Assembly: GCA_015231795.1 (NCBI GenBank)
Contig: JADGAX010000007.1
Coordinates: 1 to 64,000, forward strand
Direction: 5' to 3'
DNA from: Alphaproteobacteria bacterium
GTDB lineage: Bacteria > Pseudomonadota > Alphaproteobacteria > Rhodospirillales > WMHbin7
Length of the DNA stretch: 64,000 nucleotides
Every line of letters starts with the position of its first letter. The first letter of the stretch is position 1. Positions 21,978 to 49,042 of this stretch are shown here, one piece after another. A model generated the notes under the pieces. That model saw nothing but the letters and a program-made list of their open reading frames with translations, was not told the DNA's origin and did not search any database. The translations under genes and the position numbers were made by a program.

Positions 21978-22982
21978 ATGAGCAATCCAGTCGCGGTCGT
22001 TACCGGGGGAGCAGGTTTCATAGGAAGCCATATGGTCGACCTCTTGCTGGACGAAGGCTACAACGTCCGGGTGATCGATAACTTTTCGGGTGGACATGAA
22101 CGGAATTTGGCCCATCACGCTGGCAATCCCCGCTTGGCGATCGAACGGGCGGACATCCTGACGCTTGAACCCCAGGCTTCCGTTTTCAAGGATGCCGCCT
22201 GCCTGTTCCATTTCGCCGGCATCGGCGACATTGTGCCTTCGATCGAACGGCCGACCGATTACCTCAACACCAACGTCCAAGGGACCGTGCGGGTCCTTGA
22301 AGGAGCGCGGGCGGGCGGCATTGGCAAGGTCGTCTATGCCGCCTCGTCGTCCTGCTACGGGCTGGCGGCAACCCCGACCGGCGAGGATCATCCCATCGCT
22401 CCCCAATATCCCTATGCGCTGTCGAAATATCAGGGCGAGCAATGCGTTCTGCACTGGCATCAAGTCTACCGGCTGCCGGTCAATTCCATCCGCATCTTCA
22501 ACGCCTATGGGCCGCGGGTGCGCACGACCGGCGCCTATGGGGCCGTCTTCGGCGTCTTCTTGCGCCAGAAGCTGGCAGCAAAGCCCTTCACGGTGGTGGG
22601 CGATGGCACGCAAAAACGTGACTTCGTCTATGTCACCGATGTGGCACGGGCCTTTTTCCTGGCCTCGCAAACGCCGCTGGCGGGGCGGATATGGAACCTC
22701 GGTACTGGCAATCCGCAATCGGTCCTGCGACTGGTCGAACTGCTGGGCGGGCCGGTGACCCATGTTCCCAGGCGCCCCGGCGAACCCGACGCCACCTGGG
22801 CGGATATTGGTGCCATCACGCGCGATCTGGGTTGGGCGCCGAGGGTCAGCTTCGAAGAGGGGGTCGGGCACATGCTGGACGATATTGAGGTCTGGCGGGA
22901 CGCCCCATTGTGGGATCCCGATTCCATCAAGACGGCCACGAAAACCTGGTTCGACTTTCTTGGTACGGAAAAAACCGCATGA
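21978..22982 (+). CDS. NDP-sugar 4-epimerase/dehydratase family protein
   Basis: A 334-residue extended SDR. I prefer ATG 21978 (GGTGGAA six bases upstream; two other start codons lie within nine bases). NAD motif TGGAGFIGSHMV, aromatic-rich FHFAGIGDIVPSIERPTDYLNTNVQGT, serine block AASSSCYG, catalytic Y-A-L-S-K and the R-F-N-A-Y-G-P loop (RIFNAYGPRVRTTGAYGAVF) are all intact. The pattern is closest to UDP-glucose/UDP-GlcNAc 4-epimerases and related decarboxylases. The stop overlaps the start of the next gene by four bases, opening a tightly coupled run of genes to 30966. Confidence 0.85.
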   Translation: MSNPVAVVTGGAGFIGSHMVDLLLDEGYNVRVIDNFSGGHERNLAHHAGNPRLAIERADILTLEPQASVFKDAACLFHFAGIGDIVPSIERPTDYLNTNVQGTVRVLEGARAGGIGKVVYAASSSCYGLAATPTGEDHPIAPQYPYALSKYQGEQCVLHWHQVYRLPVNSIRIFNAYGPRVRTTGAYGAVFGVFLRQKLAAKPFTVVGDGTQKRDFVYVTDVARAFFLASQTPLAGRIWNLGTGNPQSVLRLVELLGGPVTHVPRRPGEPDATWADIGAITRDLGWAPRVSFEEGVGHMLDDIEVWRDAPLWDPDSIKTATKTWFDFLGTEKTA

Positions 22983-24529
22983 CTCTGACCTTGGCATCGA
23001 AATACGGCAACAAGATCAAGACGGCCGAGGAACTGATCGAACTGATCGGCCCCAGGCCGCGCAAGCACTCCGTGGTCATGTGTCACGGCGTTTTCGATCT
23101 GGTGCATCCCGGCCATATCCGCCATCTGCTGTACGCTAAAAGCAAGGCCGACATCCTGGTTGCCAGCCTGACCGCCGATCAGCACATCAACAAGGCCCAA
23201 TACCGCCCGTTCGTGCCGCAGGATCTGCGCGCCCTTAACCTGGCGGCGCTGGAAATGGTCGATTACGTCGTCATCGACCCTGATCCGACGCCTCTTGCCA
23301 ACATCGCACACATTCAGCCCGACCTTTTCGCCAAGGGCTACGAATACCAGGATACCGGCATTCATCCCAAGACGCAGGAGGAACTGGACCTCGTCACCTC
23401 CTACGGCGGCGAGATGCTGTTTACGCCGGGCGACATCGTATATTCCTCGTCGGCGATCATCGAGACGGTTCCGCCCAATCTGACCGTCGATAAGCTGGTC
23501 ACGTTGATGGAGGCCGAGAACATCACCTTCGACCGGCTGCGCCAGACCCTGGCCAAGGCCAAGGGAATCCCGGTGCATGTCGTCGGCGACACCATCGTCG
23601 ACAGCCTGACCTACACGACCTTGATTGGCGGTATGACCAAGTCGCCGACCCCGTCGGTACGCTTCGACCGCAAGGTGGATTTCATTGGCGGCGCTGCTGT
23701 CGTGGCCAGGCATCTCAGGGCGGCGGGGGCACAGGTGTCGCTCTCGACTGTGCTGGGAAAGGACGAGTTTAAGAAGTTTGTGTTGGACGGCTTGGCCCAA
23801 GACGGTATCACCTGCCAGGCGGTGATCGACCGCACGCGTCCCACCACCAACAAGAACGCCATCGTTTGCGGCGGCTATCGCCTTTTGAAGGTGGACAACG
23901 TCGACACTCGTCCCGTGATGGGGCCGATTCTCGACAAGCTGGTCAAGCAGATCGCCGAGACGCCAGCCAAGGGCGTGGTGTTCAGCGATTTTCGCCACGG
24001 CATCTTCAACCGGCGCACCATTCCCGTGCTGGCTGGCGCCATTCCTGCCGGGGTCCTGCGCGTTGCCGACAGTCAAGTGGCCAGCCGCTGGGGCAACATC
24101 CTGGAATTCGAGGGCTTCGACCTCATCACTCCCAACGAGCGCGAGGCTCGTTTCGCCCTGGCCGATCAGGACAGCGGCGTCCGTCCCCTTGCTTCCAGTC
24201 TGTTCGAGGCCGCCAAATGCGGCACGCTGATCTTGAAACTAGGCGAGCGCGGCATCATCACTTGGCGTTCGACGGCCGACCATGCGGGCCGCCCCTTCCT
24301 GGTGCTGGACAGCTTTGCCGACCGGGTGGTCGATCCGGTGGGGGCGGGCGACGCCCTGCTGGCCTATTCGACGCTGGCCATGCTGGTCGGCGAATCGGAG
24401 GCGGTGGCCTCGATCCTGGGCTCGATCGCCGCCGCCCTGGAATGCGAGCATGACGGAAATATCCCGATCGGAATCGACAAAATGCTGGAAAGCATCGCCT
24501 CGATCGAGAAGTGCGCGGAGTTCCGCTGA
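22979..24529 (+). CDS. Bifunctional nucleotidyltransferase-PfkB kinase, HldE-like with reversed domain order (copy 1)
   Basis: A 516-residue protein in which a cytidylyltransferase-like domain comes first (GVFD at 37-40, HPGH at 43-46, and a C-terminal YSSSAII block near 157) and a PfkB-family sugar kinase second (residues about 200-516, ending in the anion-hole motif GAGD near 455-458). E. coli HldE has the kinase first. HldE phosphorylates heptose-7-phosphate at C1 and then adds a nucleotide. The present protein probably phosphorylates and activates a sugar phosphate in the same way, but the substrate may differ. It overlaps the previous and next genes and a transketolase is encoded 5 kb downstream in the same run. 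Confidence 0.85.
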   Translation: MTLTLASKYGNKIKTAEELIELIGPRPRKHSVVMCHGVFDLVHPGHIRHLLYAKSKADILVASLTADQHINKAQYRPFVPQDLRALNLAALEMVDYVVIDPDPTPLANIAHIQPDLFAKGYEYQDTGIHPKTQEELDLVTSYGGEMLFTPGDIVYSSSAIIETVPPNLTVDKLVTLMEAENITFDRLRQTLAKAKGIPVHVVGDTIVDSLTYTTLIGGMTKSPTPSVRFDRKVDFIGGAAVVARHLRAAGAQVSLSTVLGKDEFKKFVLDGLAQDGITCQAVIDRTRPTTNKNAIVCGGYRLLKVDNVDTRPVMGPILDKLVKQIAETPAKGVVFSDFRHGIFNRRTIPVLAGAIPAGVLRVADSQVASRWGNILEFEGFDLITPNEREARFALADQDSGVRPLASSLFEAAKCGTLILKLGERGIITWRSTADHAGRPFLVLDSFADRVVDPVGAGDALLAYSTLAMLVGESEAVASILGSIAAALECEHDGNIPIGIDKMLESIASIEKCAEFR

Positions 24530-25443
24530 TGCGCGTCGTCGTCGCCGGCATGGGCGTCCAGGGCAGAAAGCGCAAGACCATCGCCGCCGCCGACGTGGTG
24601 GCCACCGTCGATCCGGTGGTCGAAGGCGTGGACCATAAGCGGATCGAAGATGTCAATCCAGCCAGTTACGATGCCGTCTTGTTGTGCGTCCCCGATCCAG
24701 AAAAGCCCACCCTGCTGCCTTGGCTGCTGGAGCGCGGCAAGCATGTCCTGGTCGAAAAGCCGTTGGAACTTGGCGACGGCGACTTCGTGGCGCTCGAAGC
24801 GCTGTCGCGCCGTCACGGAGCGTTACTTCAGGTTGGCTACAACCACCGCTACGAGCCGCATGTCGCCCGCATGCGCGAAACCCTGGCCTCGGGCGTTTTG
24901 GGTAGAATTTATTATTGCCGTTTCTTTTACGGCAACGGCACGGCGCGCGACGTGCGCAATTCTGCCTGGCGCGATCAGGGCTCGGGCGTTGTCGCCGACC
25001 TGGCCTCGCACCTTCTGGATACCGCCTGGGAATGGTTTGGGGATCTGCCGGCGCCGTTTAAGCTGATCTCGGCGCACCGGTTCGAGAACCGCGCCCCGGA
25101 TCATGCCGTGATGGCCTGCGGGGGCGGCATCCCCATCGAAATGGAAGTGTCCCTGGTTTCCTGGCGCAATCATTTTTCCGCCCTGGTGGTGGGCGAGAAG
25201 GGCAGCGCCGAGATCGACTCGCTGTGTAAATGGGGACCGTCCAGCTTTAGCCTGCGTACCCGCGTCCTGCCCAGCGGACGTCCGCCCGAGGAATGCGTCA
25301 CCCTGGTTCAGCCCGACCCCAGCTGGGCACTTGAATATGCTCATTTTAAAAAGGCCTGCCAGGCTCCGGCGCCCTACGATTCCAGCCGCGACCGGCGGAT
25401 TGCCTGTCTGCTAGAAGGTATTGCCAAGGAATGCCTGGCATGA
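24529..25443 (+). CDS. Gfo/Idh/MocA-family oxidoreductase
   Basis: A 304-residue NAD(P)-dependent sugar or cyclitol dehydrogenase. Start at ATG 24529 within TGATG. Rossmann start MRVVVAGMGVQGRKRK, acidic loop (VVATVDPVVEG), VLLCVPDP, the catalytic-lysine block VLVEKPLEL and the QVGYNHRYEPHV stretch are typical. The C-terminal alpha/beta domain has GSGVVADLASHLLDTAWEWFG, in which the Asp-x-x-x-His motif of the active site is visible. Such enzymes oxidise a ring hydroxyl, for example to a 3-keto sugar, giving a handle for amino transfer or rearrangement. Four-base-overlap operon with the UGD-like gene downstream. Confidence 0.85.
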   Translation: MRVVVAGMGVQGRKRKTIAAADVVATVDPVVEGVDHKRIEDVNPASYDAVLLCVPDPEKPTLLPWLLERGKHVLVEKPLELGDGDFVALEALSRRHGALLQVGYNHRYEPHVARMRETLASGVLGRIYYCRFFYGNGTARDVRNSAWRDQGSGVVADLASHLLDTAWEWFGDLPAPFKLISAHRFENRAPDHAVMACGGGIPIEMEVSLVSWRNHFSALVVGEKGSAEIDSLCKWGPSSFSLRTRVLPSGRPPEECVTLVQPDPSWALEYAHFKKACQAPAPYDSSRDRRIACLLEGIAKECLA

Positions 25444-26726
25444 AACCTCGCATTGCTTTTGCTGGCATGACCCATCTGGGCCTGGTGTCCAGCGTCGCTG
25501 CCGCTGCCAAGGGGTTCGAGGTGCTGGGTTTCGATCCTGACGCCGCTTTGGTCGGGGCTTTGCAAGCCGGGCGCCTGCCGATCGTCGAGCCGGATCTTGA
25601 CGACACCCTGGCCGCCAACGCCGAGCGTCTGGCCTTTACCAGCCGGATCGAGGACCTGGCGGGTTGCAACGTGGTTTTCCTGTCCGCCGACGTGCCGACC
25701 GGAGACGACGGGGGCAGCGATCTGTCCCCCATCCGCCGGTTGATCGAGACGGTTCTGCCGCATCTTGGCGCCGATGCCGTTTTCGTCGTCCTGTGCCAAG
25801 TGCCGCCCGGCTTCACGCGGACCGTGGGACGTGATGGGGCGCATCTGTTCTATCAGGTCGAGACGCTGATTTTTGGCCGCGCCATGGAACGCGCCTTACT
25901 GCCTGAACGCATTATCGTCGGCAAGAGCGACAGCGGGCTTGCTCTGCCCCCAGCCTATCGGGCCTATCTCGACGCCTTCGGCTGTCCCGTTCTGCCGATG
26001 GTCTACGAAAGTGCCGAATTGGCCAAGATCGCCATCAACTGTTTCTTGGTCGCCCAGGTCACCACCACCAACACGCTGGCCGGCCTGGCCGAACGGATCG
26101 GCGCCGACTGGGGTGAAATCGCCCCGGCCTTAAGGCTCGACGCCCGCATCGGCCCCAAGGCCTATCTGGGGCCAGGGCTTGGGCTGGCTGGCGGCAATCT
26201 CGAGCGCGATCTGGCGACGGTGCAGGCGCTGGCCTGCCAGTTCGGCAGCGAGGCGGGGCTGATCGACGCCATGACCGCCAACAGCAGCCTGCGCAAGGAC
26301 TGGATGCTGACCACCCTGCACCGCGAGGTGCTGTCCAAGATGCCCAACCCCGTGATTGCCGTGCTGGGCCTGGCTTACAAGGAAAACACCCGTTCGACCA
26401 AGAACTCGCCGTCGCTGGCTTTGATCTCCTGCCTGAAGGATTGGCAAGTTAGGGTGTTCGATCCCGTGGTCGATCCTGAAGTGCTGACTCATCCCAAACT
26501 GGTTGCGGCCCCGTCGGCGCTGGCGGCGGCCCAAGGGGCCGACGTTCTTGTCATCGCCACCGCCTGGCCCGAATTCCGCTCGCTGACCGGCGAGGTCCTT
26601 GAAAAGGTCATGCGCGGGCGTACAGTCATCGATCCCTGGCGCGTGCTGGCGTCGGCGCCGGGCTTCGATCATTTCGTTTTGGGTGTGCCGCCCCGAAGGG
26701 AGGCTTCGCTTGCTGCGTCATCATAA
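25440..26726 (+). CDS. UDP-glucose/GDP-mannose dehydrogenase homologue without the catalytic cysteine
   Basis: A 428-residue protein. Start at ATG 25440 (AAGGA nine bases upstream). It has the N-terminal NAD domain (RIAFAGMTHLGLVSS), the central helical domain (YESAELAKIAINCFLVAQVTTTNTLAGLAERIG) and the C-terminal UDP-binding domain (VIAVLGLAYKENTRSTKNSPSLALI, ATAWPEFRSL). In active enzymes the catalytic loop reads GGSCFPKD; here it is GGNLERD, with Asn253 in place of the nucleophilic cysteine. It therefore cannot form the thioester needed for two-step oxidation, and may act as a single-step dehydrogenase, an epimerase-like or a binding protein. An intact cysteine-containing UGD is at 52837. 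Confidence 0.85.
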   Translation: MKPRIAFAGMTHLGLVSSVAAAAKGFEVLGFDPDAALVGALQAGRLPIVEPDLDDTLAANAERLAFTSRIEDLAGCNVVFLSADVPTGDDGGSDLSPIRRLIETVLPHLGADAVFVVLCQVPPGFTRTVGRDGAHLFYQVETLIFGRAMERALLPERIIVGKSDSGLALPPAYRAYLDAFGCPVLPMVYESAELAKIAINCFLVAQVTTTNTLAGLAERIGADWGEIAPALRLDARIGPKAYLGPGLGLAGGNLERDLATVQALACQFGSEAGLIDAMTANSSLRKDWMLTTLHREVLSKMPNPVIAVLGLAYKENTRSTKNSPSLALISCLKDWQVRVFDPVVDPEVLTHPKLVAAPSALAAAQGADVLVIATAWPEFRSLTGEVLEKVMRGRTVIDPWRVLASAPGFDHFVLGVPPRREASLAASS

Positions 26727-27579
26727 CAGCGCACCCTCGATGCCCAAGCGGGCCGTCGTCGTCGGCGGTGGCGGCTTCGTGGGCAGGGCCATCGTCAACG
26801 CTCTGCGGGCCAAGGGTTGCGAAACCGACGCCGTATTGAAAAGTGAGATCGACCTGCTGGCCGAAGACGCGCCCCAGCGCCTGGCTGCACGCATCCAGGA
26901 CGGCGATGCGCTTATCCTGGTTTCGTTTCCAGCCCCGGCCCGCACGCATCAGGCCATGCTGGACGCCCTTCGCATGACGGCGGCCATGATCGACGCCATC
27001 AAGGGCAGGAAGTTAGCGCAACTGGTGGCGATCTCCAGCGATGCCGTCTACGCTTCCGCGCTCAGCCGCATCGACGAGCGGACCTGCCGCCAGCCCGACA
27101 GCTTTCACGGCATGGCCCATGCGGCGCGCGAATTGATGCTGGCCCAGGCCGCCAGCGCGCCTTTCGCCGTTCTCAGGCCCTGCTTGATCTATGGCGCCAA
27201 GGATCCCCATAACGGATACGGCCCCAACCGTTTCATGCGTCTTGCCGAAGCGGGCAAGCCGATCACCCTTTCCGGCCAGGGCGAGGAGTTGCGCGATCAC
27301 ATTTTCATCGAGGATGTTGCCGAGCTGGCAGCGCTTAGCGCCTTGTGGCGCTCATCGGGGTCGTTGAATCTGGCTACGGGCCATAGCGTGTCCTTTGCCG
27401 AAGTGGCTCAGATTTTGTCGGGCTTGATGCCCGGGCGGGTCCGCATCGAAACCCAGCCCAGGACACAGCCGGTCACCTACCGTCATTTCAGCGTCGAGGA
27501 GAGGATCAAGGCCTTTCCGGATTTCCAGCCGACGCCGCTGGCGTTAGGTTTGTCTCACGTCGTCAAGGAAGGACGCTGA
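26710..27579 (+). CDS. Degenerate NAD-dependent epimerase/dehydratase-like protein
   Basis: A 289-residue SDR-type protein. TTG 26710 is chosen because GGGAGG lies about seven bases before it; ATG 26740 is an alternative without a visible site. The nucleotide-binding glycines are present (VVVGGGGFVGRAIV), as are IHIEDV-like and NLATGHSVSFAEVAQIL regions. The catalytic Tyr-x-x-x-Lys is replaced: SFHGMAHAARE has His133 and His137 at those positions. It may bind a nucleotide sugar without the standard chemistry. It overlaps the previous gene, and its last base is the first base of the next start codon. Confidence 0.75.
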   Translation: MLRHHNSAPSMPKRAVVVGGGGFVGRAIVNALRAKGCETDAVLKSEIDLLAEDAPQRLAARIQDGDALILVSFPAPARTHQAMLDALRMTAAMIDAIKGRKLAQLVAISSDAVYASALSRIDERTCRQPDSFHGMAHAARELMLAQAASAPFAVLRPCLIYGAKDPHNGYGPNRFMRLAEAGKPITLSGQGEELRDHIFIEDVAELAALSALWRSSGSLNLATGHSVSFAEVAQILSGLMPGRVRIETQPRTQPVTYRHFSVEERIKAFPDFQPTPLALGLSHVVKEGR

Positions 27580-28241
27580 TGGCCGAAGTCGATTTGCTGG
27601 CCAAACTGCCCAAAAGCAAGGGAACGCGTGATCTGGCGGCGCGCAAAGCCGCTCTGACGGCAGAAAACATCCGCCTGTCGCGCGAATACGGTTGGGCCTA
27701 TTTCGACGGCCCGCGCGAGATCGGCTATGGTGGTTACCGCTATGACGGGCGGTGGATTCCGGTGGCCGAGGACATCGTGCGCCATTTCGGTCTGAAGGCG
27801 GGCGATAGGGTGCTTGACGTCGGCTGCGCCAAGGGATTCCTGGTCAAGGACTTGATGACGGCGTGTCCAGGCCTTGAGGCTTTCGGCCTCGACATTTCCG
27901 AATATGCGGTGACCCACTGCGAGCCCGAAGTGGTGGGCCGCCTGCATATCGGCAACGCGCTCAGCCTGCCCTTCCCCGACGCTAGTTTTCAGGTCGTGAT
28001 TTCCATCAACGCCATCCACAACCTGCCCCGCGATGGCGTAGTGCAGGCCCTGAAGGAAGTCCAGCGCTTGAGTGGCGGCAAGGCCTTTGTGCAGGTCGAT
28101 TCCTACCGAACGCCCGAGCAGCGTGCCTTGTTCCTGGATTGGGTGCTGACCGCCGAATTCCACGATTACCCTGAAGGCTGGTTCAAGCTGTTCGACGAGG
28201 CCGGCTACACCGGCGACTGGTATTGGACAATTCTGGAGTAG
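27579..28241 (+). CDS. Class I SAM-dependent methyltransferase (copy A of a pair)
   Basis: A 220-residue protein with the distinctive N-terminal block REYGWAYFDGPREIGYGGYRYDGRWIPVAEDIVRHFGLKAGDRVLDVGCAKGFLVKDLM, in which the SAM motif is VLDVGCAKGFL. ISINAIHNLPRDGVVQALKEVQR follows at the catalytic region. The paralogue at 36896 shares YGGYAYDGRW, SINVLHNLYNY and the VESYR-like strand. The Tyr/Gly-rich motif is known from methyltransferases of polysaccharide loci. The start overlaps the previous stop by one base. Probably methylates a nucleotide-bound sugar made in this operon. Confidence 0.8.
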   Translation: MAEVDLLAKLPKSKGTRDLAARKAALTAENIRLSREYGWAYFDGPREIGYGGYRYDGRWIPVAEDIVRHFGLKAGDRVLDVGCAKGFLVKDLMTACPGLEAFGLDISEYAVTHCEPEVVGRLHIGNALSLPFPDASFQVVISINAIHNLPRDGVVQALKEVQRLSGGKAFVQVDSYRTPEQRALFLDWVLTAEFHDYPEGWFKLFDEAGYTGDWYWTILE

Positions 28242-28250
28242 AGACGCGAC

Positions 28251-29243
28251 ATGGCAAAAACCTATGCGATCCTGGGTGCCGCGGGCTGTTTTTCCGTGCA
28301 GACCGCACTTTGGCTTCTTGACCATGCCGAACCGTCCAAGGTGATCGGCGTTGGCCGCCATCCCTTGCCCGAGGACTCCTTCTCGCTGGGCGTTCACCGG
28401 CGCAAGGGCTACGAATACCACGCCTACCACGTCACCTATGAATGGGAAGAGCTACTGGAACTGCTCGACCGCGAGCGGCCCGAGGTCATCATCAATTTCG
28501 CTGCCCAGGGCGAGGGGGCACTTTCCTGGAAGAAGTCGTGGCGCTATTTCGAAACCAACTGCGTTGGGCTGACCAGGCTGGTCGAGCATTTGGGAAAGCG
28601 CGATTGGTTGGAACGCTTCATCCATATTGGTACCTCCGAACTGTATGGTTCGGTCGGCCATGCGGTGAACGAGGACCATCCCATCAAGCCCACTAATCCC
28701 TATGCTGTTTCAAAGGCCGCCTTTGACATGCATTTGGAATGCATCCGCGACGTGCTGGGTTTTCGGATGAACATCATCCGCCCTTCCAACGCCTATTGCC
28801 CGGCCCAGCGCCTGCACCGCGTTATCCCCAAGGCGGTGGTGCTGGGGCTGCAGGGTAAAAAGTTGCCGCTGCAGGGCGGCGGCGCGGTCCGCAAATCCTA
28901 TTTCCATGCCCGAGACCTAGCTCGCGCGATCTATCTGGTGTCCGAGAAGGCGCCCTTGGGCGCCATCTACAACTGTGGACCCAAGGAGCCTATATCGATC
29001 CGTGAGATCGTCGAGAAGACCGCCCAGGCCTTGGGTATGCCGTTCGACGATCTGGTCGAGATGGCGCCCGCCCGCCAGGGCGAGGATGCCTGCTATTGGC
29101 TGGATTCGTCGCGTCTCATGCGCGACACCGGATGGGCGCCGCAAATCAGCCTGGAAGAAGGATTGGCCGAGATGGTCGAATGGGGCCGCGCTTATCTTGG
29201 CAATTTGCAGGAATATCCGACAGACTATGTGTTAAGAGCATGA
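28251..29243 (+). CDS. NDP-sugar 4,6-dehydratase family protein (GDP-mannose dehydratase-like)
   Basis: A 330-residue extended SDR. NAD motif is slightly unusual (AILGAAGCFSVQTALWLL), the serine block is HIGTSELYG, and the catalytic Y-A-V-S-K is intact (NPYAVSKAAFDMHLE). The dehydratase-type RPSNAYCPAQRLHRVIPKAVVLGLQGKKLPLQGGG arm and YFHARDLARAIYLV fit GDP-mannose or dTDP-glucose 4,6-dehydratases, which form the 4-keto-6-deoxy sugar that later steps alter. Nine bases after the methyltransferase gene, and its stop overlaps the transketolase start (ATGA). Confidence 0.85.
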   Translation: MAKTYAILGAAGCFSVQTALWLLDHAEPSKVIGVGRHPLPEDSFSLGVHRRKGYEYHAYHVTYEWEELLELLDRERPEVIINFAAQGEGALSWKKSWRYFETNCVGLTRLVEHLGKRDWLERFIHIGTSELYGSVGHAVNEDHPIKPTNPYAVSKAAFDMHLECIRDVLGFRMNIIRPSNAYCPAQRLHRVIPKAVVLGLQGKKLPLQGGGAVRKSYFHARDLARAIYLVSEKAPLGAIYNCGPKEPISIREIVEKTAQALGMPFDDLVEMAPARQGEDACYWLDSSRLMRDTGWAPQISLEEGLAEMVEWGRAYLGNLQEYPTDYVLRA

Positions 29244-30046
29244 CCAGGGCTAACGATTTCGATACGGTGGCGGCAAGGCTGCGCTGCCTGAGCTACCGGC
29301 GGCGCATCCTCGGCGTAGCGCATGCCGTGCAGGCGGCGCATGTGGCGCCCGCCTTCTCGTGTCTCGAGATGGTCGATGCCATCTATTACGGCCTGAAGGG
29401 TGAGCACGATCATTTCCTGATCTCGAAGGGGCACGGGGTGCTGGCCCAGTATGCGGTGCTGGAGGGGCTGGGCATCCTGTCACCTGAGGAACTCGACCGA
29501 TACGACACGTTGGATGGCCGCCTGGCCGCCCATCCCGACCGCGGCGTTCCGGGCATCGAAGCCTCGACCGGCTCCCTGGGCCATGGCATGGCCCTGGCGG
29601 CGGGCATGGCCCTGGCGGAACGCCTGCAAGGAACCATGGGATCTATTCACGTCCTGTTGTCAGACGGCGAATTCCAGGAAGGCTCGACCTGGGAAGCGAT
29701 GATGATGGCCGCCAATCTCAAGCTTGGCAATCTGGTAGCCTATCTCGACCTCAACGATTTTCAGGGGCTGGGGCGGACCAGCCAAACCCATCCCGCCTTC
29801 TATCCGGTGCTGGACAAAGTGCGCGCCTTCGGCTGGGAAGCCCAGGAAGCCAACGGGCACGACGCGGGCATGGTGGTCTCGAAGGTGCGCGACCGGCAGG
29901 GCGGCAAGCCCTTCTTGCTGGTCGGGAAAACGGTGAAGGGGCGCGGCGTGTCCTTTATGGAGAACCAGCCGATCTGGCATTACCGCTCGCCCAATGACCA
30001 GGAGTACCGGCAAGCGCTCGACGAGTTGCATGAGGTCTCGTCATGA
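29240..30046 (+). CDS. Transketolase, N-terminal (thiamine-diphosphate) subunit, copy 1
   Basis: A 268-residue half-transketolase. ATG 29240 overlaps the previous stop. The ThDP-binding half shows SKGHGVLAQYAVL (62-74), EASTGSLGHGM and the metal/ThDP motif S-D-G at 141-143 followed by the N of D-L-N at 170-172 (normal G-D-G is S-D-G here). The other half is the next gene, which overlaps by four bases; the two should assemble as an alpha2-beta2 enzyme. Split transketolases in sugar clusters transfer two-carbon units to make longer or branched ketose phosphates. A second split pair is at 44635-46370. Confidence 0.9.
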   Translation: MTRANDFDTVAARLRCLSYRRRILGVAHAVQAAHVAPAFSCLEMVDAIYYGLKGEHDHFLISKGHGVLAQYAVLEGLGILSPEELDRYDTLDGRLAAHPDRGVPGIEASTGSLGHGMALAAGMALAERLQGTMGSIHVLLSDGEFQEGSTWEAMMMAANLKLGNLVAYLDLNDFQGLGRTSQTHPAFYPVLDKVRAFGWEAQEANGHDAGMVVSKVRDRQGGKPFLLVGKTVKGRGVSFMENQPIWHYRSPNDQEYRQALDELHEVSS

Positions 30047-30966
30047 GAAACAATTTCGCCGCTGCCTTCCACGAAGCCGCCGGGCAGGATCCGCGCCTGT
30101 GCCTGCTGGTGGCCGATATTTCGCCCGCCGGTTCCATTCAGGCCTTCCGCGAGGCCTATCCCGACCGCTTCATCAATACCGGCGTTGCCGAGCAGGTGAT
30201 GATCGGCATGGCCGCCGGTATGGCCATGCGTGGCTTGCGTCCCTTCGCCTATACCATTGCTCCGTTCGCGCTCTACCGGCCCTTCGAAATGATCCGGGTC
30301 GACCTGGCTTACCAGAATCTGCCCGTCACCGTGGTCGGCATCGGCGGCGGCGTCACCTATTCCGTTCTGGGCGGAACCCACCATGCCCAGGAAGATGTCG
30401 CCATCGCCTGCGCCGTGCCCAATATGGCCGTCATCGCCCCTTGCGATCCACTGGAAACGCGCGAGGCCACCAAGTGGTGCGCCGGGCAGGAACGGGGGCC
30501 GGTCTATCTGCGCCTGGGCAAGGCGGGCGAGCCGGATCTGACCTCGCAGACCAGCGAGCCATTCGTCTTCGGCAAGCTTAGGTTTTTGACCAAGGGCAGC
30601 GACGTCGCCGTTCTGTCCTACGGCCCGATCCTTAAGATGGGGGCCGAGATCGCTAACCGCTTTCGCCAAGAGGGCACTTCGGTCTCGCTGATTTCTGCCC
30701 ATACGCTGAAACCCTTCGACACCGAGGGCGTGGCCGACCTGCTGGCGAATTGCCGCCGGGTTGTGGTGATCGAAGAGATGGTGCCGCATGGCGGCCTAGC
30801 CGACCGGGTGAAGGTGCTCGCCTGGGAACGGAAAGCCACCTGCCGCATCGACACCTTCACGCTGGACGATGCCTTCCACCACCGCTACGGCACACATGCC
30901 GAACTGCTGGCCGTTCACGGATTGGAGCTGGAGCGGATTTGGCAGAGTCTTAAACAAGATTCCTGA
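30043..30966 (+). CDS. Transketolase, C-terminal subunit, copy 1
   Basis: A 307-residue partner of the gene upstream (four-base overlap). The pyrimidine-binding domain contains the catalytic glutamate in NTGVAEQVMIGMAAGMAM (Glu50), followed by the conserved GGGVTYSVLGGTHHAQEDVAIACAVPNMAVIAPCDPLETREA and the C-terminal regulatory domain (VAVLSYGPILKMGAEIANRF, TLKPFDTEGVADLL, VVVIEEMVPHGGLADRVKVL). The set is close to 1-deoxyxylulose-5-phosphate synthase and transketolase C-termini. Ends the tightly overlapping run that begins at 21978. Substrates unknown. Confidence 0.9.
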   Translation: MRNNFAAAFHEAAGQDPRLCLLVADISPAGSIQAFREAYPDRFINTGVAEQVMIGMAAGMAMRGLRPFAYTIAPFALYRPFEMIRVDLAYQNLPVTVVGIGGGVTYSVLGGTHHAQEDVAIACAVPNMAVIAPCDPLETREATKWCAGQERGPVYLRLGKAGEPDLTSQTSEPFVFGKLRFLTKGSDVAVLSYGPILKMGAEIANRFRQEGTSVSLISAHTLKPFDTEGVADLLANCRRVVVIEEMVPHGGLADRVKVLAWERKATCRIDTFTLDDAFHHRYGTHAELLAVHGLELERIWQSLKQDS

Positions 30967-39972: not shown

Positions 39973-39983
39973 ATGGTTCGAAC

Positions 39984-40847: not shown

Positions 40848-40848
40848 C

Positions 40849-41953: not shown

Positions 41954-42111
41954 GCACGCATAATTTGTCAGCATGATGCCGACAGCCCGGGCAGCTGCTG
42001 CTTTGCGGCGTACACGTATGATGTGCTATTCAACCTTTCGGTTGGCCTGGAATCGAGTTATTCTGCGCCAATCAGGAGCGAATGGGCACCGATCGGAAGT
42101 GAAGGTTCGTG

Positions 42112-42798: not shown

Positions 42799-42854
42799 CT
42801 TGCATTTCTCGAATGGAGGGACAATCGGTCCCGAACCGAGGGGATGTCGTTTAA

Positions 42855-43934: not shown

Positions 43935-44641
43935 CTTGGCCAAGTCACTTTCGCGCAATGCCGGATTTTCTTGGCGAAAACATTAACCATGTATTCGCAT
44001 CCTCTTTCGCCGCACATGAGTAGAGTTCTCGAATCGGGGGGGAAGCCATTCCAGATTTGCAGGCCGCTGCTGTTATGTTGGCAGACAAAGCTTGAGCACA
44101 TCTCAAATCCATTGGCTTCGTAGAACTTCTCGTAGAAGATCGGATTCATGTTGTAAAACCCATGATTCAAGGCGAATAACGGGTTTCCATTGGTTGCAAC
44201 GCCCCCGACCCTTGTTGCAAGGGCCATATTGGCAATCGCCTGCGCGACATTGAAGCAGTGCTCGATGGTTCCGCCGTCGATAACAGCATCGAACTTTTGA
44301 TGAAAGTCCTGAGGGATGGGCTCATTCAGGTCGATTTTCAAGGCATCGGGTGACGGATCGTACAAGTCGATGAACGTGGTTTCGAAGCCGAAGAGACGGT
44401 AAAACGCCGTCGGGTTCAGGCGCAACCGCCGTCCCTCTCCTTTTTCGTTTTCTTCAGCGATTTCCGCGCCGATCGGCGATTTATCCGTCATTCGCGACGA
44501 TAAGGTCATCAGGACCCGCTCACTCAGCAGGATGTCGGTGTAGCCCAAGGCAAGCAGCTTGATTCCCTTGTTCACGCCAAGCAACTTATGGATTTGCTCG
44601 AAAACGAAGATCGAGAAATCTGCGTTGGCCTCTGTTAGCAC
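43928..44641 (-). CDS. Methyltransferase-like protein
   Basis: A 237-residue protein with a SAM-methyltransferase-like core: LLALGYTDILLSERVL as a motif I region without the glycine-rich loop, then FHQKFDAVIDGGTIEHCFNVAQAIANMALATRVGGVA, a typical motif post-I/post-II pattern with an I-E-H block, and GFYNMNPIFYEKFYEANGFEM. It may therefore be a degenerate or specialised methyltransferase. It overlaps the convergent gene at its 3' end by seven bases and its start overlaps the transketolase stop by seven bases. Last gene of the minus-strand half of the island. Confidence 0.55.
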   Translation of the reverse strand: MLTEANADFSIFVFEQIHKLLGVNKGIKLLALGYTDILLSERVLMTLSSRMTDKSPIGAEIAEENEKGEGRRLRLNPTAFYRLFGFETTFIDLYDPSPDALKIDLNEPIPQDFHQKFDAVIDGGTIEHCFNVAQAIANMALATRVGGVATNGNPLFALNHGFYNMNPIFYEKFYEANGFEMCSSFVCQHNSSGLQIWNGFPPDSRTLLMCGERGCEYMVNVFAKKIRHCAKVTWPSQ

Positions 44642-45561
44642 TGAGAAATCTCCCTAAGCGCCGTTTCATGTATTTGGTCTGAAGTCAGGCCGGCATCACG
44701 CAGCAAATCAGCCTGCGAGCCGTAGTTATGGGAAAACGCGTCAGGCAAGCCAAGCCGCTTAAATCTCGTCAGCGGCATGGCATTATCGACTAAAGCTTCA
44801 AGGACAGCGGAGCCTAATCCCCCCGCCAGCACGTTCTCTTCGACGGTTAGAATCGTTTGGCTGCTTCTGGCCAGTGTCCATAAGGCATCAATATCAAGCG
44901 GCTTCACGGTCGGCACATGCAGGACGCCGCAGGGCCGCCCCTCGGCGGCTAGCCGCAAGGCAACCTGACGGCAGGCCTCGGTCATGATTCCGGTCGATAC
45001 GAAATTCGTTGCCTCAGGAGGCAAGACCCAATAGGCACGCCCGATTTCAAAGCCGTTGCGCTCGATCGGCACGACCGGATCCCCGCCTTTTCCGAAACGG
45101 ATATAAAGCGGCCCTGCGTGGGCCAGCGAGCTTTCCATTGTCAGGCGCATTTCATGCGCATCAGATGGAGCGATAACCGTCATGTTCGGAACAGCCCGCA
45201 GGATGGATAGATCCTCTATGGCCAAATGGGTTGGTCCCAGCGGGGCGTAGACCAAGCCACCACCGGATGACAACAGGCGAAGGGGAAGATTGTGCAGGCA
45301 GGCGTCAACAACAATTTGTTCGAAACAGCGGCGGCTAAGAAACGTGGCAATGGTATTGACGTAAGGAATGAATCCTTCCAGTGCTAGGCCCGATGCCAAG
45401 CCGATCAAATTCTGCTCAGCCACGCCCTCCATGAACCATCGGTCTGGAAATTCCTCACGGAAATTCTGCAATGTTCCAGCCCCCAGATCAGAGCCGATGA
45501 ATACGACCCTCTGGTCAAGCCGCGCCAATTCGTGAACCATGTTAAGCGCTGTCTGGCGCAT
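44635..45561 (-). CDS. Transketolase, C-terminal subunit, copy 2
   Basis: A 308-residue C-terminal half-transketolase with the catalytic glutamate in MEGVAEQNLIGLASGLAL (Glu49), followed by PLGPTHLAIEDLSILRAVPNMTVIAPSDAHEMR and C-terminal VLHVPTVKPLDIDALWTLARSSQTILTVEENVLAGGLGSAVLEAL. Its start overlaps the stop of the N-terminal half by one base. With that gene it forms a complete ThDP enzyme. It is clearly distinct from the split pair at 29240-30966. Confidence 0.9.
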   Translation of the reverse strand: MRQTALNMVHELARLDQRVVFIGSDLGAGTLQNFREEFPDRWFMEGVAEQNLIGLASGLALEGFIPYVNTIATFLSRRCFEQIVVDACLHNLPLRLLSSGGGLVYAPLGPTHLAIEDLSILRAVPNMTVIAPSDAHEMRLTMESSLAHAGPLYIRFGKGGDPVVPIERNGFEIGRAYWVLPPEATNFVSTGIMTEACRQVALRLAAEGRPCGVLHVPTVKPLDIDALWTLARSSQTILTVEENVLAGGLGSAVLEALVDNAMPLTRFKRLGLPDAFSHNYGSQADLLRDAGLTSDQIHETALREISQC

Positions 45562-46370
45562 TATCCGCCTCCCAGGCAGGCGCGCATAGCCGCAATATCG
45601 TCGTCGGACACTTTCGATTTATGATGCCACGCAGCTACGTTCTCGGCAAAGGGCACGCCTTTCCCCTTGACCGTATGGCACACGACCAGTCTCGGCTTTC
45701 CAGTAGCGAAGTTATGAGCTTGCAGCGCAGCTGATAGGGCGGAACAATCGTGGCCGTCGACTTCGGAAACGTTAAAGCCAAAACTTCTCCACTTGTCGGC
45801 CAAAGGCTCCAATGGCATGACGTCGTCAACCGGGCCGTAGGATTGCAGCTTGTTGTAATCGACTAGGGCCGTCAGGTTGTCCAGGCTATGTTTAGCCGCA
45901 GACATGGCAGCCTCCCATACAGATCCTTCGTTTATCTCGCCGTCGCCCATGACGACATAAACGCGGGCTGGATTTTTTTTCAGCCGCAGGCCAAGCGCCA
46001 TGCCGACGGCGATCGGCAGGCCATGTCCCAGCGCCCCTGTCGAGGCCTCGACGCCTGGGGTTCTTCCTGCCTCGGGGTGTCCGCCCAGGAAGGTTCCATA
46101 ACGGCAGAAATGGCGCAATTCATGGGGGTCGAAAAACCCCTTGTCGGCCAGAATTGCATAAAGCGCCAAGCATCCGTGCCCTTTGGACAAAATGAATCTG
46201 TCGCGCTGCTCCGACTTAGGGTTGGCTGGATCGAATTTCAGAATCTCGTCGTAAAGAACTCTCAGGATTTCAACCAAGGAAAGGGCCGAGCCAAGATGGC
46301 CCCGCCCACCGCCTTCCAGGGCCGTCACGATCAAGCGCCGCAAATATAGCGACCGGCTGTCGAGGTTCAT
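45561..46370 (-). CDS. Transketolase, N-terminal (thiamine-diphosphate) subunit, copy 2
   Basis: A 269-residue half-transketolase; ATG 46370 overlaps the upstream kinase stop by four bases. Canonical features are present: GGGRGHLGSALS, RFILSKGHGCLALYAIL, the ThDP/metal motif GDG at 142-144 with N of DYN at 171-173 (GDGEINEGSVWEAAMSA), and CHTVKGKGVPFAENVAAWHHK. Probably joins two-carbon units to an aldose phosphate together with the partner gene. It is more canonical than copy 1, where GDG reads SDG. Confidence 0.92.
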   Translation of the reverse strand: MNLDSRSLYLRRLIVTALEGGGRGHLGSALSLVEILRVLYDEILKFDPANPKSEQRDRFILSKGHGCLALYAILADKGFFDPHELRHFCRYGTFLGGHPEAGRTPGVEASTGALGHGLPIAVGMALGLRLKKNPARVYVVMGDGEINEGSVWEAAMSAAKHSLDNLTALVDYNKLQSYGPVDDVMPLEPLADKWRSFGFNVSEVDGHDCSALSAALQAHNFATGKPRLVVCHTVKGKGVPFAENVAAWHHKSKVSDDDIAAMRACLGGG

Positions 46371-47389
46371 ATCGCCAGGCTTTCGTTTTTCAGCATGGCT
46401 CTGGCCTTGGCAAGTTGGCGGGCTTTGACTGCCGGCCAGTTCGTTTGTCCGGCCAGTTCGCGGCAAGCCCATTTATGCGGAAAGAATTCATTCAGCAGAA
46501 TCATGCTCCATCTTAGTGCATACAGCGGGTAAAGCAAAGCGAGCCTGATTTCGAAATTCGGGTCCCCATGAAAGCAGGGACTCATCTTCTGCAAAAACAT
46601 GCGCTTTCTCTCGACGCTCAAGTTCATGCCAGGATGCAGGAAAAAGTCACAGAGCATTTTTATAGGATCGTCCCAGCCAAAATATTCAAAATCGATAAAG
46701 AACAGCCCGCCCGGTGTTCGAATGGCGTTGTGCAGGCCGAAGTCGGAAGGATTGAGAGTTCGATGCTTCCTCGGCAGATCATCCTGCCAGCTCTGACCTG
46801 TTTCAAGGCAGGCGTTCTTTGCAGCCCTCAAGCGTTCCGACAAAGCCGGAGCAAATTCGTTTGCGAGATAAGATGCCAACTCGGGTTCTTGTTTCAAAGC
46901 CGACAGTTTTTCAAAGCGCACCAGTATTTGCCGCTCGATTTCCCAGGCAGACAGGCAGGCTTCGCTGGCCAGGGGAACGCTCCCGGCTTCTTGCTGATCA
47001 CCAAGATTCTTTAAGGTAGCTAGAAAGTCAGCGGCCTGACCGATGTCGTCATCGCATGGATTGTCGTTGGCTGGCTCACCTTCCTGCCAGTCATAGACGG
47101 CAACCCTTGCTTCGAAATCCACCCCGACAGGACGAGGAACGATTTCAATTCCGAAGGACCGCATGAAAACAAGCGCTCGGTATTCAGTGCCGATTCTGTC
47201 ACGGCAGTCATGCCCAGGCGGCGCGTAGGATTTAAGAATGTAGTTGTCACCGTTCGCCGTTTCGACCCGGAACACGCGGTTGTTGCCTTTTGACGCCAGC
47301 AATCGAAGAGGCAACACAGGCTGGCCAATAAGTCTGCCTGCGATTATTTCCAACGCAGCTTGAGCTATTATCGGTTCGGCGGCTGTCAT
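46367..47389 (-). CDS. Aminoglycoside-phosphotransferase-like kinase
   Basis: A 340-residue protein. ATG 47389 is chosen (AGGA about seven bases upstream); longer in-frame starts at 47443 and GTG 47479 lack a site. The kinase-like fold shows NRVFRVETANGDNYILKSY (nucleotide-binding lysine), a catalytic-loop variant LNPSDFGLHNAI and the metal-binding LFFIDFEYFGWDDP. Such proteins phosphorylate small molecules such as choline, sugars or antibiotics. Situated between the HldE-like and transketolase genes, it may phosphorylate the sugar that enters this module. No sign of antibiotic resistance. Confidence 0.7.
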   Translation of the reverse strand: MTAAEPIIAQAALEIIAGRLIGQPVLPLRLLASKGNNRVFRVETANGDNYILKSYAPPGHDCRDRIGTEYRALVFMRSFGIEIVPRPVGVDFEARVAVYDWQEGEPANDNPCDDDIGQAADFLATLKNLGDQQEAGSVPLASEACLSAWEIERQILVRFEKLSALKQEPELASYLANEFAPALSERLRAAKNACLETGQSWQDDLPRKHRTLNPSDFGLHNAIRTPGGLFFIDFEYFGWDDPIKMLCDFFLHPGMNLSVERKRMFLQKMSPCFHGDPNFEIRLALLYPLYALRWSMILLNEFFPHKWACRELAGQTNWPAVKARQLAKARAMLKNESLAI

Positions 47390-47482
47390 GTCCGTCCTGT
47401 TAATATCCCAACCTATATCGAATGGATCGACCGCATTTGTCATCAAGCAGTTTGCGCGGCCATTCCTGTCACTCAACACAGT

Positions 47483-49042
47483 TCATTTCAACAAAGCTGT
47501 GACAAATTTCAGCACTTTTTCCTTCTCGACCGAACGTCTGTGTCCGACGATTCCAACCTTGATAGCGCCGACCGCGTTGCCAACGAATCCAACGACGCTC
47601 ATATCGCCGCCGGCAGCCACCAAAGGCGCGGTAACGGCAAAGAAAGCGTCTCCGGCGCCCACCGTGTCGACGACGGTCTTGGTGAAGGCGGGCACTTGGT
47701 GGCATCCATGCTCGGGTTGCCAGGTCATGCAGCCGTGAACGCCTTGAGTGATAATTGCGCAGGTACAGGCGACGACTTTATGGAAATGCTCCGACACCAG
47801 AAGGCCAATATCTGAATACTTGTCGCCCATGGACAGACGTAGTTCTGGAGTGTCGATGCAGACATAGTCAGCTTTTGGATATTTCGTGACCAGATTAAAG
47901 CCCAGATTGGCGCTGTTCGACTGGGCGTTTAGGGCAAAGAAGCGGGCGTGTTTTGTGATGGCCTGGCGGCATTCGGCGGTCAGCAGGCCATGTCCGAAGT
48001 CGGTAACGACTGTCAGATCGCATCGCGGGGCCAAATCGGCGATTAGGGCCAGAAGTTCCTCTTCCAGGGGGCGGCCCATATAGCTGTCATCCATCTCGTA
48101 GACTTCGAACAGCTTACGCATATAACCCAAATCGACGAACCGTGTCTTGCGGGTTGTCGGCACGTTAGGCCTAGTCACGAGGTGTAAGCGGACATTGGGA
48201 AGCAAGCTCTTGCGAATGACCTCTTCGTCTTGTGAACTGGCCCCGCCAATCATGGTGATGACATCGACCTGGCTGCAAAAGCTGGCGACATGATTGGCGG
48301 CGGCGATGACCCCGCCTGCAAAGACCTCGCTGTCTTTGTAGATGGTGGCGATCATGTTCTCCTTGGGCGACTTGCCCAGCGGTTGAACGTAGCGGTATTC
48401 GTCTATGATGGCATCGCCGACGAGAAGAACGCGAAACCCTTGAACGCGCTCCATCAACCCATTTATCTGGTGCAGGATATCCTTCTCGCGCGCCGTCTCG
48501 AGATAGCAGCGCAGTTCGGGATCGTAGACATCGAAATATCTATTGATCAGCGACGATGAACTGAAGGTGATGCCTTTGGTAAAGGCGATTTCACCCCCGC
48601 AGGCCTCAACTTCGCCGCGTTCGGATTCGATTTTTCCCGTTATGTCGCTGCCGGCGTCTTCGTAGTCGGAGCCTTTCACGTAGACATGGGGGCGGATGGC
48701 GCGGATGGCCGTTTCTGCCGAGGGATGACGGTTGATGGCAACCGCGTCGACATAGCCGATGGCTGCGACCATTTCCGCACGCAACAGCTCGGGAAAGATT
48801 GGCCGCCCAGGCCCCTTGTTGACGTGCGCATCTTCGGTCAGAGTCACGACCAGGAAGTCTCCGTGCTGCCGGGCCTCTTCGAAATGGCGGACATGGCCCA
48901 TATGGAGAAGGTCAAAAACGCCATGGCAGTGAACGACCCGCTGCCCCTTCTGGCGGACTGCTACGCAAAGTGCCGCCGCATCGTCCAGCGATGTTATCTT
49001 GTCGCGGGCCTTGGCGATTCCTGAATCGTCCTGGCGGGTCAT
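47483..49042 (-). CDS. Bifunctional nucleotidyltransferase-PfkB kinase, HldE-like with reversed domain order (copy 2)
   Basis: A 519-residue paralogue of the gene at 22979, on the minus strand. The cytidylyltransferase-like domain comes first (GVFD at 41-44, HMGH at 47-50, SSSSLINRYF later), and the PfkB kinase second, ending in VDTVGAGDAFFA (GAGD at 462-465). AGGAGAA lies seven bases before ATG 49042. It heads a run that continues with a small-molecule kinase-like gene and a split transketolase. The two paralogues differ widely in the middle, suggesting different sugars. The domain order is opposite to E. coli HldE. Confidence 0.85.
   Translation of the reverse strand: MTRQDDSGIAKARDKITSLDDAAALCVAVRQKGQRVVHCHGVFDLLHMGHVRHFEEARQHGDFLVVTLTEDAHVNKGPGRPIFPELLRAEMVAAIGYVDAVAINRHPSAETAIRAIRPHVYVKGSDYEDAGSDITGKIESERGEVEACGGEIAFTKGITFSSSSLINRYFDVYDPELRCYLETAREKDILHQINGLMERVQGFRVLLVGDAIIDEYRYVQPLGKSPKENMIATIYKDSEVFAGGVIAAANHVASFCSQVDVITMIGGASSQDEEVIRKSLLPNVRLHLVTRPNVPTTRKTRFVDLGYMRKLFEVYEMDDSYMGRPLEEELLALIADLAPRCDLTVVTDFGHGLLTAECRQAITKHARFFALNAQSNSANLGFNLVTKYPKADYVCIDTPELRLSMGDKYSDIGLLVSEHFHKVVACTCAIITQGVHGCMTWQPEHGCHQVPAFTKTVVDTVGAGDAFFAVTAPLVAAGGDMSVVGFVGNAVGAIKVGIVGHRRSVEKEKVLKFVTALLK

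What the first reader, a model, noticed from the sequence alone, without database searches (positions are those of the whole stretch)
22979..49042. Two modules that pair a permuted HldE-like protein with a split transketolase
At 22979 and 47483 the nucleotidyltransferase domain precedes the PfkB kinase, opposite to E. coli HldE. Each is on the same strand and within a few kilobases of a two-gene transketolase (29240-30966 and 44635-46370). A transketolase could make a dedicated long-chain ketose phosphate and the fused protein could phosphorylate and activate it. Duplicate but divergent modules in one island would give two different activated sugars. No gmhA or gmhB partner is seen. The combination is not one I know as a described pathway.
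Basis: partly seen in the sequence, partly recalled or inferred. Interest (0 to 1): 0.78.

Follow-up and report, generated by a model that had tools for sequence, protein, structure and literature searches.

The report
Two modules for unusual branched sugars
This bacterial sugar-making island carries two conserved gene sets that each pair a rearranged long-sugar activating enzyme with a two-part thiamine enzyme; comparison with relatives suggests that the second enzyme adds a two-carbon branch to an unusual sugar for the cell surface, a chemistry proposed but not yet shown for such enzymes.

Summary
Both proteins have the nucleotidyltransferase (NT) domain before the PfkB kinase, each on the same strand as a nearby split transketolase (TK). 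The pairing is conserved: of 76 fetched NT-PfkB loci of the order, 61 hold both subunits of a two-subunit thiamine enzyme within about 9 kb. Type 1 pairs with TK subfamily 1 (11 of 11), type 2 with subfamily 2 (38 of 39). A prediction noted before fetching 20 loci outside the order was met in 12.

The proposed chemistry is partly right. (1) Type-1 relatives carry GmhA- and GmhB-like genes and a transaldolase beside NT-PfkB, so it probably activates a heptose- or octose-like aldose, as in the lincosamide route. (2) In 13 loci a full E1-type (acetyl-transfer) pair occurs, in 12 of them without TK; type-1 loci keep the supply genes. (3) All 51 TK C-halves examined lost two acceptor-side residues of canonical TK but keep catalytic ones. 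This favours TK as a C2-branching enzyme on an activated keto-sugar, proposed but unproven for miharamycin, over TK as maker of the ketose phosphate. No activity was tested. Interest 0.6; new variant of a known kind.

The parts
21969..22982 (+). SDR-B, NAD-dependent epimerase/dehydratase family; overlaps the NT-PfkB1 start by 4 bases
   Evidence: PF01370 8e-57; SDR-B homologue in 18 of 20 type-1 and 44 of 56 type-2 loci
22979..24529 (+). NT-PfkB1: nucleotidyltransferase domain then PfkB kinase domain
   Evidence: HPGH and GAGD motifs visible
24511..25443 (+). GFO/IDH/MocA oxidoreductase (start uncertain)
   Evidence: in 19 of 20 type-1 loci
25431..26726 (+). NDP-sugar dehydrogenase (UGD family)
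   Evidence: TIGR03026 214.5 bits, cut-off 189.8; in 19 of 20 type-1 loci
26599..27579 (+). SDR, 'EPIM1' (start uncertain, probably near 26713)
   Evidence: PF01370; in 17 of 20 type-1 loci
27579..28241 (+). SAM methyltransferase, 'MT5' family
   Evidence: in 15 of 20 type-1 loci
28251..29243 (+). SDR with motif GTSELYG, read here as 4,6-dehydratase-like (recalled), directly before TKN1 (4-base overlap)
29240..30046 (+). TKN1, N-terminal (ThDP-binding) half of split transketolase 1
   Evidence: PF00456, start
30043..30966 (+). TKC1, C-terminal half of split transketolase 1
   Evidence: PF02779 + PF02780; H461 to G and D469 to L relative to the genome's full-length TK
47483..49042 (-). NT-PfkB2: nucleotidyltransferase domain then PfkB kinase domain
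   Evidence: structure model
46367..47479 (-). APH-family kinase between NT-PfkB2 and TKN2 (start uncertain)
   Evidence: PF01636; family in 34 of 37 TK-only type-2 loci, 0 of 9 E1-only type-2 loci, 0 of 20 type-1 loci
45561..46370 (-). TKN2, N-terminal half of split transketolase 2
   Evidence: PF00456; closest solved structure by sequence 6yak, a split TK
44635..45561 (-). TKC2, C-terminal half of split transketolase 2
   Evidence: PF02779 + PF02780; closest solved structure by sequence 6yaj; acceptor residues changed
35815..36885 (+). radical SAM/SPASM protein of the rSAM14 family that accompanies TK in many type-2 loci
   Evidence: rSAM14 in 18 of 37 TK-only type-2 loci; 62% match
36896..37558 (+). 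MT5-family methyltransferase, second copy
   Evidence: MT5 in 27 of 37 TK-only type-2 loci; 66% match

Best explanation
Each module makes an unusual nucleotide-activated sugar for a surface glycan. NT-PfkB acts as a permuted HldE: the PfkB half phosphorylates C1 of a heptose- or octose-type aldose phosphate, a HAD phosphatase removes the far phosphate, and the NT half forms the NDP-sugar. SDR, GFO and UGD enzymes then oxidise or epimerise it to a keto-sugar. The split transketolase transfers a two-carbon hydroxyacetyl unit to that ketone, giving a branched-chain sugar that is then methylated. In sister loci a two-subunit E1-type ThDP enzyme takes the slot and would give an acetyl branch. Shown here: domains, conserved order, TK/E1 alternation, residue changes. 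Inferred: substrates, the order of steps, the branch and the surface location.
For: Heptose/octose side: HldE and rfaE_dom_I/II are the best NCBIfam hits of both proteins, below cut-off; the PfkB half of P0002 is closest to HldA by fold; type-1 loci carry transaldolase (15 of 20), GmhB-like HAD (15 of 20) and GmhA-like SIS (8 of 20), roles also found in the lincosamide octose route as tabulated in PMC4351081 (passages). C2-branch side: both subunits of TK or of E1 in 61 of 76 loci (TK 49, E1 13, both kinds 1); counting single subunits 63 of 76 with 2 holding both kinds, one-sided Fisher p 0.026 for type 1 and 1.3e-4 for type 2; transaldolase 4/4, GmhB 4/4, SIS 3/4 kept in type-1 E1 loci; H461 to G in 51/51 and D469 to L or Q in 51/51 TK C-halves while R358, E411 and H473 are 51/51 and H26, H66, H261 71/71 in N-halves (48/48 and 68/68 without repeated contigs); a dehydratase-like SDR abuts TKN1. 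Precedent: split-gene TKs are proposed to transfer hydroxyacetyl to keto-sugars, and alpha-keto-acid-dehydrogenase-type pairs add C2 branches (PMC12247030, passages, section 2.3).
Against: No activity data, and no glycan structure from these organisms was looked up. In type-2 loci supply genes are rare: transaldolase 1, GmhB-like 0, SIS 5 of 56. HAD8 and APH, which in type-2 loci come only with TK, have no assigned reaction. 10 of 44 close TKN2 orthologs have no NT-PfkB2 within 12 kb (six of the ten on contigs shorter than 12 kb). 8 of 20 loci outside the order have neither TK nor E1, and the exclusivity there is not significant (p 0.14). The E1 link was noticed in the same data that gave the counts; related loci are not independent. 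SDR-A and SDR-B carry epimerase-like rather than dehydratase-like motifs (reading of motifs recalled). By sequence the NT half of P0002 matches cytidylyltransferases of other substrates at least as well as an LPS enzyme. The window has no TAL, GmhB, SIS, HAD8 or DegT match. R520 and S385 of canonical TK are not kept in the alignment as made, so donor-phosphate binding is not settled.
Confidence: 0.46

Rival explanations
1. One reading: the split TK (with transaldolase in type-1 relatives) makes a heptulose or octulose phosphate, which an isomerase turns into the aldose phosphate that NT-PfkB phosphorylates and activates.
For: Transaldolase, SIS and GmhB-like genes beside NT-PfkB1 in relatives; TK and transaldolase can both form octulose phosphates (PMC5854111, passages); R358, which binds substrate phosphate in TK (recalled), is kept in 51 of 51.
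Against: In type-1 loci E1 stands in for TK while the supply genes stay; a 1-deoxyketose from an E1-type reaction could not be isomerised by the SIS enzyme (inference); H461 and D469 are lost in 51 of 51; the genome has a full-length TK and one transaldolase elsewhere.
Confidence: 0.28
2. The genes are neighbours only because both belong to one surface-glycan island; NT-PfkB and TK serve different sugars of the same glycan.
For: TKN2 without NT-PfkB2 within 12 kb in 10 of 44 cases; 8 of 20 loci outside the order with neither TK nor E1; HAD8-APH with TK also occurs apart from or inverted against NT-PfkB, e.g. L092, L115, L121 and TK loci L143, L146, L147.
Against: Type-to-subfamily pairing, 11 of 11 and 38 of 39, and conserved gene order in 11 of 11, 27 of 38 and 8 of 9 loci with TKN are more than loose co-location gives.
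Confidence: 0.18

Closest known systems
HldE (bifunctional heptose 7-phosphate kinase / heptose 1-phosphate adenylyltransferase)
   Same: PfkB and NT domains in one protein; HldE, rfaE_dom_I and rfaE_dom_II are the best NCBIfam hits; HldA is the closest solved fold of the kinase half; type-1 relatives sit beside GmhB-like and often GmhA-like genes
   Different: Domain order reversed; scores far below the HldE cut-off (147.6 and 143.7 against 521 bits); the genome has a separate canonical-order HldE
[quoted passage not shown]
   Same: Two-gene TK beside sugar oxidoreductases; ketone acceptor inferred
   Different: The review counts 13 such sequences, all from Streptomycetes (PMC12247030 section 2.3); these are from Pseudomonadota sugar islands. 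No sequence comparison with them was made
Split transketolase of Carboxydothermus hydrogenoformans (6yaj, 6yak)
   Same: Closest solved structures of both TK2 halves by sequence
   Different: It keeps H and D in the stretch ATHAGLTVGEDGASH (alignment), which these TKs lost
Alpha-keto-acid-dehydrogenase-type (E1 alpha/beta) sugar-branching enzymes, e.g. of aldgamycin and kibdelomycin (PMC12247030 passages)
   Same: An E1a/E1b pair takes the place of TK in sister loci
   Different: The window has the TK form; no sequence comparison with the known enzymes was made
Lincosamide octose pathway (LmbR, N, P, K, O, M, L, Z, S)
   Same: Across type-1 relatives the same nine roles occur: transaldolase, SIS, kinase, HAD, NT, SDR, UGD, GFO, DegT (Lmb roles from PMC4351081 passages)
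   Different: Kinase is PfkB-type and fused to NT; plus split TK or E1; no sequence comparison was possible

Membership tests
HldE | PfkB kinase and cytidylyltransferase-like domains in one chain | tested here: met
HldE | kinase domain N-terminal, NT domain C-terminal | tested here: not met
   NT first in both
HldE | score above the curated NCBIfam cut-off | tested here: not met
   147.6 and 143.7 bits, cut-off 521; the cut-off assumes the usual domain order
HldE | heptose 7-phosphate kinase and nucleotidyl transfer activity | not testable with these tools
   HxGH and GAGD-type motifs in the window proteins; in relatives of 480 aa or more HxGH-type found in 17 of 19 (type 1) and 57 of 63 (type 2), D..GAGD/GSGD in 19 of 19 and 63 of 63
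Transketolase (pentose phosphate type) | ThDP-binding and donor-side residues | tested here: met
   H26, H66, H261 71/71, H100 70/71, E411 and H473 51/51 (E. coli numbering and roles recalled)
Transketolase (pentose phosphate type) | acceptor-side H461 and D469 | tested here: not met
   G in 51/51 and L or Q in 51/51
C2-branching split TK (miharamycin type) | two-gene TK beside enzymes able to act on NDP-sugars | tested here: met
C2-branching split TK (miharamycin type) | hydroxyacetyl transfer to a ketone | not testable with these tools
   pending for the known cases too
C2-branching split TK (miharamycin type) | sequence kinship with the miharamycin TK | not tested
   no such sequence was at hand
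Lincosamide-like octose pathway | all nine roles in one cluster | tested here: inconclusive
   found across type-1 relatives; the window itself has kinase, NT, SDR, UGD, GFO; SIS, GmhB-like and transaldolase matches lie on contig C2; no DegT match in the window

The most novel reading that the evidence does not exclude
Pseudomonadota surface-glycan islands hold interchangeable ThDP cassettes: a split transketolase or a split E1 enzyme adds a hydroxyacetyl or an acetyl branch to the same kind of NDP-heptose/octose keto-sugar, made by a permuted HldE, giving a family of branched sugars of nine or ten carbons; the TK cassettes would be the first such class described outside Streptomyces.
Probability: 0.33. 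Interest if true: 0.78.

Novelty: new variant of a known kind. Interest (0 to 1): 0.6.

Why it matters
Whether transketolases can use ketone acceptors to make branched sugars is open: the 2025 review says experimental evidence is still needed and counts 13 candidates, all from Streptomycetes. These loci give dozens of candidates in Pseudomonadota, with a natural experiment (TK and an E1 enzyme alternating beside the same sugar-activating genes) and named partner genes. They also suggest a dedicated route to long-chain sugars that uses a permuted HldE.

Tried and rejected
Considered and rejected or left open. (1) Chance neighbours: set aside because of conserved order and subfamily pairing. (2) NT-PfkB as the genome's LPS-core HldE: unlikely, a canonical-order HldE beside a gmhA match exists. 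(3) Split TK as the housekeeping enzyme: a full-length TK exists. (4) My first annotation of 21927-22997 (minus) gave no Pfam hit; the plus-strand SDR-B 21969-22982 is the gene. (5) HAD8, without Pfam hits in three relatives and without NCBIfam hits in one, was folded (pLDDT 92.3): HAD fold, best match 3bwv, deoxyribonucleotidase-like, E 3.4e-07; its substrate stays unknown. (6) In the structure comparison of whole NT-PfkB2 the rows shown cover about residues 184-519 only; the NT half was barely tested there and is assigned by sequence. (7) Papers: ten searches, of which searches listed nothing; no listed title or abstract start describes the NT-PfkB plus split-TK pairing. Most subscription journals are not held. 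Opened: PMC12247030 (passages and section 2.3), PMC4351081 and PMC5854111 (passages).

Rows dropped before counts. One search counted the 44 of 80 non-window TKN2 matches at 60% identity or more. Type-2 counts use 56 loci (L070-L125) of the 73 non-window places: L024 and L028 were fetched but are under 5 kb and left out, 15 were not fetched (14 lie within about 3 kb of a contig start; G187:C402 was simply not taken). Type-1 counts use 20 of 26 non-window places; six at 30-34% identity were left out, although all six lie in loci fetched for other reasons (L092, L100, L126, L127, L146, L147). 'Neither' loci: type 1 five (L051, L054, L067 with short downstream flanks), type 2 eight (L074, L084, L089, L114, L125 with a short flank on at least one side). 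L066 and L091 show only E1a, L115 only TKC.

Outside the order: 20 loci named before looking; 9 with TK, 3 with E1, none with both, 8 with neither; a looser filter finds 10 with TK. Five of the nine TK loci are from one genus and L188 is a 34%, opposite-strand match, so this is weak support.
Full report
OBSERVATION. Pfam places the nucleotidyltransferase (CTP_transf_like) domain before PfkB in both proteins: 22979-24529 (+) and 47483-49042 (minus). NCBIfam gives HldE, rfaE_dom_I and rfaE_dom_II as best hits, all far below cut-off. The two are 30% identical. Motifs HPGH / HMGH in the NT half and GAGD in the kinase half are present. The TKs are split into an N-half and a C-half; the closest solved sequences of TK2 are the split TK 6yak / 6yaj. 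In module 1 the genes overlap or nearly abut from SDR-B (21969) through TKC1 (30966), all on the plus strand. In module 2 the order is NT-PfkB2, APH kinase, TKN2, TKC2 on the minus strand. The genome has a canonical-order HldE beside a gmhA match on contig C1 and a full-length TK on C6, so these copies are extra.

IS THE PAIRING CONSERVED? Of 317 genomes searched in the order (the window's own included), 70 have a P0002 match at 1e-60 and 26 a P0001 match. I fetched the surroundings of 20 type-1 and 56 type-2 loci and mapped gene families by tblastn. TK occurs in 11 of 20 and 39 of 56. Type-1 loci with TK all hold TK subfamily 1 (11 of 11), type-2 loci subfamily 2 (38 of 39; L112 is the exception). 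All 11 type-1 TK loci keep NT-PfkB1-GFO-UGD-EPIM1-MT5 with TKN-TKC on the same strand (upstream instead of downstream in L056); 27 of 38 type-2 loci with TKN keep NT-PfkB2-(SDR-A)-HAD8-APH-TKN-TKC. In the other direction 34 of 44 close TKN2 orthologs lie within 12 kb of NT-PfkB2; at genome level 37 have both, 6 TKN2 only, 32 NT-PfkB2 only, 241 neither. Six of the ten exceptions lie on contigs under 12 kb; L130, L131, L132 and L135 are true exceptions with longer flanks. Loci are related, so p-values overstate independence.

WHAT NT-PfkB WORKS ON. In type-2 loci these are rare (transaldolase 1, GmhB-like 0, SIS 5 of 56), though L008 and L009 have a SIS-family gene directly after NT-PfkB2. With UGD, GFO and DegT, type 1 matches the roles of the lincosamide octose route: transaldolase LmbR, isomerase LmbN, kinase LmbP, phosphatase LmbK, guanylyltransferase LmbO, epimerase LmbM, dehydrogenase LmbL, oxidoreductase LmbZ, aminotransferase LmbS (PMC4351081, table seen as a passage). 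By fold, the kinase half of P0002 is closest to HldA (Z 31.5, rmsd 2.9, 303 aligned; next family 28.4); the model is of middling quality (pLDDT 77). By sequence its NT half matches cytidylyltransferases such as 3elb (59.8 bits) as well as the 5x9q enzyme (47.1), so the nucleotide is not decided. A C7 or C8 aldose phosphate is the likely substrate; which one is open. In this genome the transaldolase and the GmhB-like/SIS matches nearest to the type-1 families lie on contig C2, where SIS and one GmhB-like HAD belong to a separate GHMP-kinase type set.

WHAT THE TK DOES. Three results point away from making the ketose phosphate. First, an E1a/E1b pair (PF00676; transketolase-like C-half) occurs: at least one subunit in 4 of 20 type-1 and 11 of 56 type-2 loci, together with TK in 0 and 2; both subunits in 3 and 10, with a full TK in 0 and 1. 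L091 has only a lone 35% E1a match; L096 has an E1 pair next to NT-PfkB2 and a divergent TK further off. In 8 of the 11 type-2 cases (L072, L081, L085, L094, L096, L103, L119, L120) E1 follows NT-PfkB2 on its strand with nothing mapped between but SDR-A or SIS. Second, the four type-1 E1 loci keep transaldolase (4), GmhB (4) and SIS (3), so sugar supply there does not need TK. Third, against the genome's full-length TK, all 51 C-halves changed H461 to G and D469 to L or Q, while E411, H473 and R358 are kept in all 51 and H26, H66, H261 in all 71 N-halves (repeated contigs removed, 48 and 68; residue numbers and roles recalled). S385 is G in 38 and S in only 5 of 51, and the R520 column reads K in 48, though an R stands close by in the RLGK/RFGK stretch, so donor-phosphate binding is unsettled. 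The E1b proteins share the G at 461 (10 of 10). The Carboxydothermus split TK keeps the H and D (alignment). So the enzyme looks catalytically able but with a changed acceptor site. A dehydratase-like SDR (GTSELYG) abuts TKN1.

PRECEDENT. A 2025 review (PMC12247030; passages, section 2.3 whole) states that TKs were proposed to transfer hydroxyacetyl to a keto-sugar in miharamycin and amipurimycin, that 13 candidates exist, all split-gene and from Streptomycetes, and that none is characterised in vitro; alpha-keto-acid-dehydrogenase-type pairs add C2 branches in several antibiotics; YerE-like decarboxylases are the class mainly tied to LPS. The TK/E1 alternation seen here fits that chemistry and would extend it to Pseudomonadota sugar islands.

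TEST OUTSIDE THE ORDER. I noted beforehand that most NT-PfkB2 loci outside the order should hold TK or E1 and rarely both. Of 20, 9 had TK, 3 E1, 0 both, 8 neither (exclusivity p 0.14): a majority, not a strong one, and five TK loci are from one genus. Of the eight, L176, L177, L178, L180 and the short L183 show no other module family at all; neighbours scanned from L176, L177, L178 and L180 gave an ArgZ-like domain, a glycosyltransferase, a phosphate cotransporter, Sel1 repeats and five without a Pfam match. NT-PfkB2 therefore also works in other settings.

WHAT REMAINS OPEN. HAD8 (HAD fold, DFDNT motif) and APH occur in 33 and 34 of 37 TK-only and 0 of 9 E1-only type-2 loci; HAD8 may play GmhB's part, APH's substrate is unknown. 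HAD8 was not found in the window. That the product enters a surface glycan is inferred from gene content. GC of 0.61-0.64 over module 1 against 0.51-0.55 over most of module 2, and absence of both from three same-genus genomes at 1e-60, suggest horizontal gain.

VERDICT. Observation confirmed; interpretation partly supported. Best reading: permuted HldE-like activation of a long aldose plus ThDP-dependent C2 branching, 0.46. On re-checking I lowered the first from 0.48 because of the S385/R520 result, the rarity of supply genes in type 2 and the non-significant exclusivity outside the order.

Noticed in passing
G000:C2 about 94.5-101.6 kb (L166:11528-18612, minus): A separate NDP-heptose/octose-like set: SDR, UGD, short-chain dehydrogenase, GFO, GHMP kinase, an NTP_transferase-SIS fusion and a GmhB-like HAD.
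   Followed up: partly
L156:8021-9747 (contig C18 of the genome): A third split transketolase beside B12-binding radical SAM matches; no NT-PfkB match on this 14.9-kb contig.
   Followed up: no
window 34000-48000: GC falls to 0.51-0.55 around module 2 against 0.61-0.64 over module 1, suggesting separate acquisition.
   Followed up: partly
window 20250-21911 and 32447-34210: Two carbamoyltransferases (Pfam Carbam_trans_N/C) in the same island.
   Followed up: no
window 35815-36885, 38209-41937 and 51645-52703: Three radical SAM proteins with SPASM matches (weak at 51645) and one B12-binding radical SAM protein in one island; rSAM14 is found in TK loci of type 2 (18 of 37, 0 of 9 E1-only), rSAM34 mainly in E1 loci (6 of 9, 4 of 37 TK-only).
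   Followed up: partly
window 10433-18666, 34211-35554, 42855-43934, 49159-51457: ORFs of 330-490 aa without a Pfam match. Some may be wrong-strand ORFs: 11744-12772 (minus) overlaps a plus-strand SDR match at 11795-12706.
   Followed up: no
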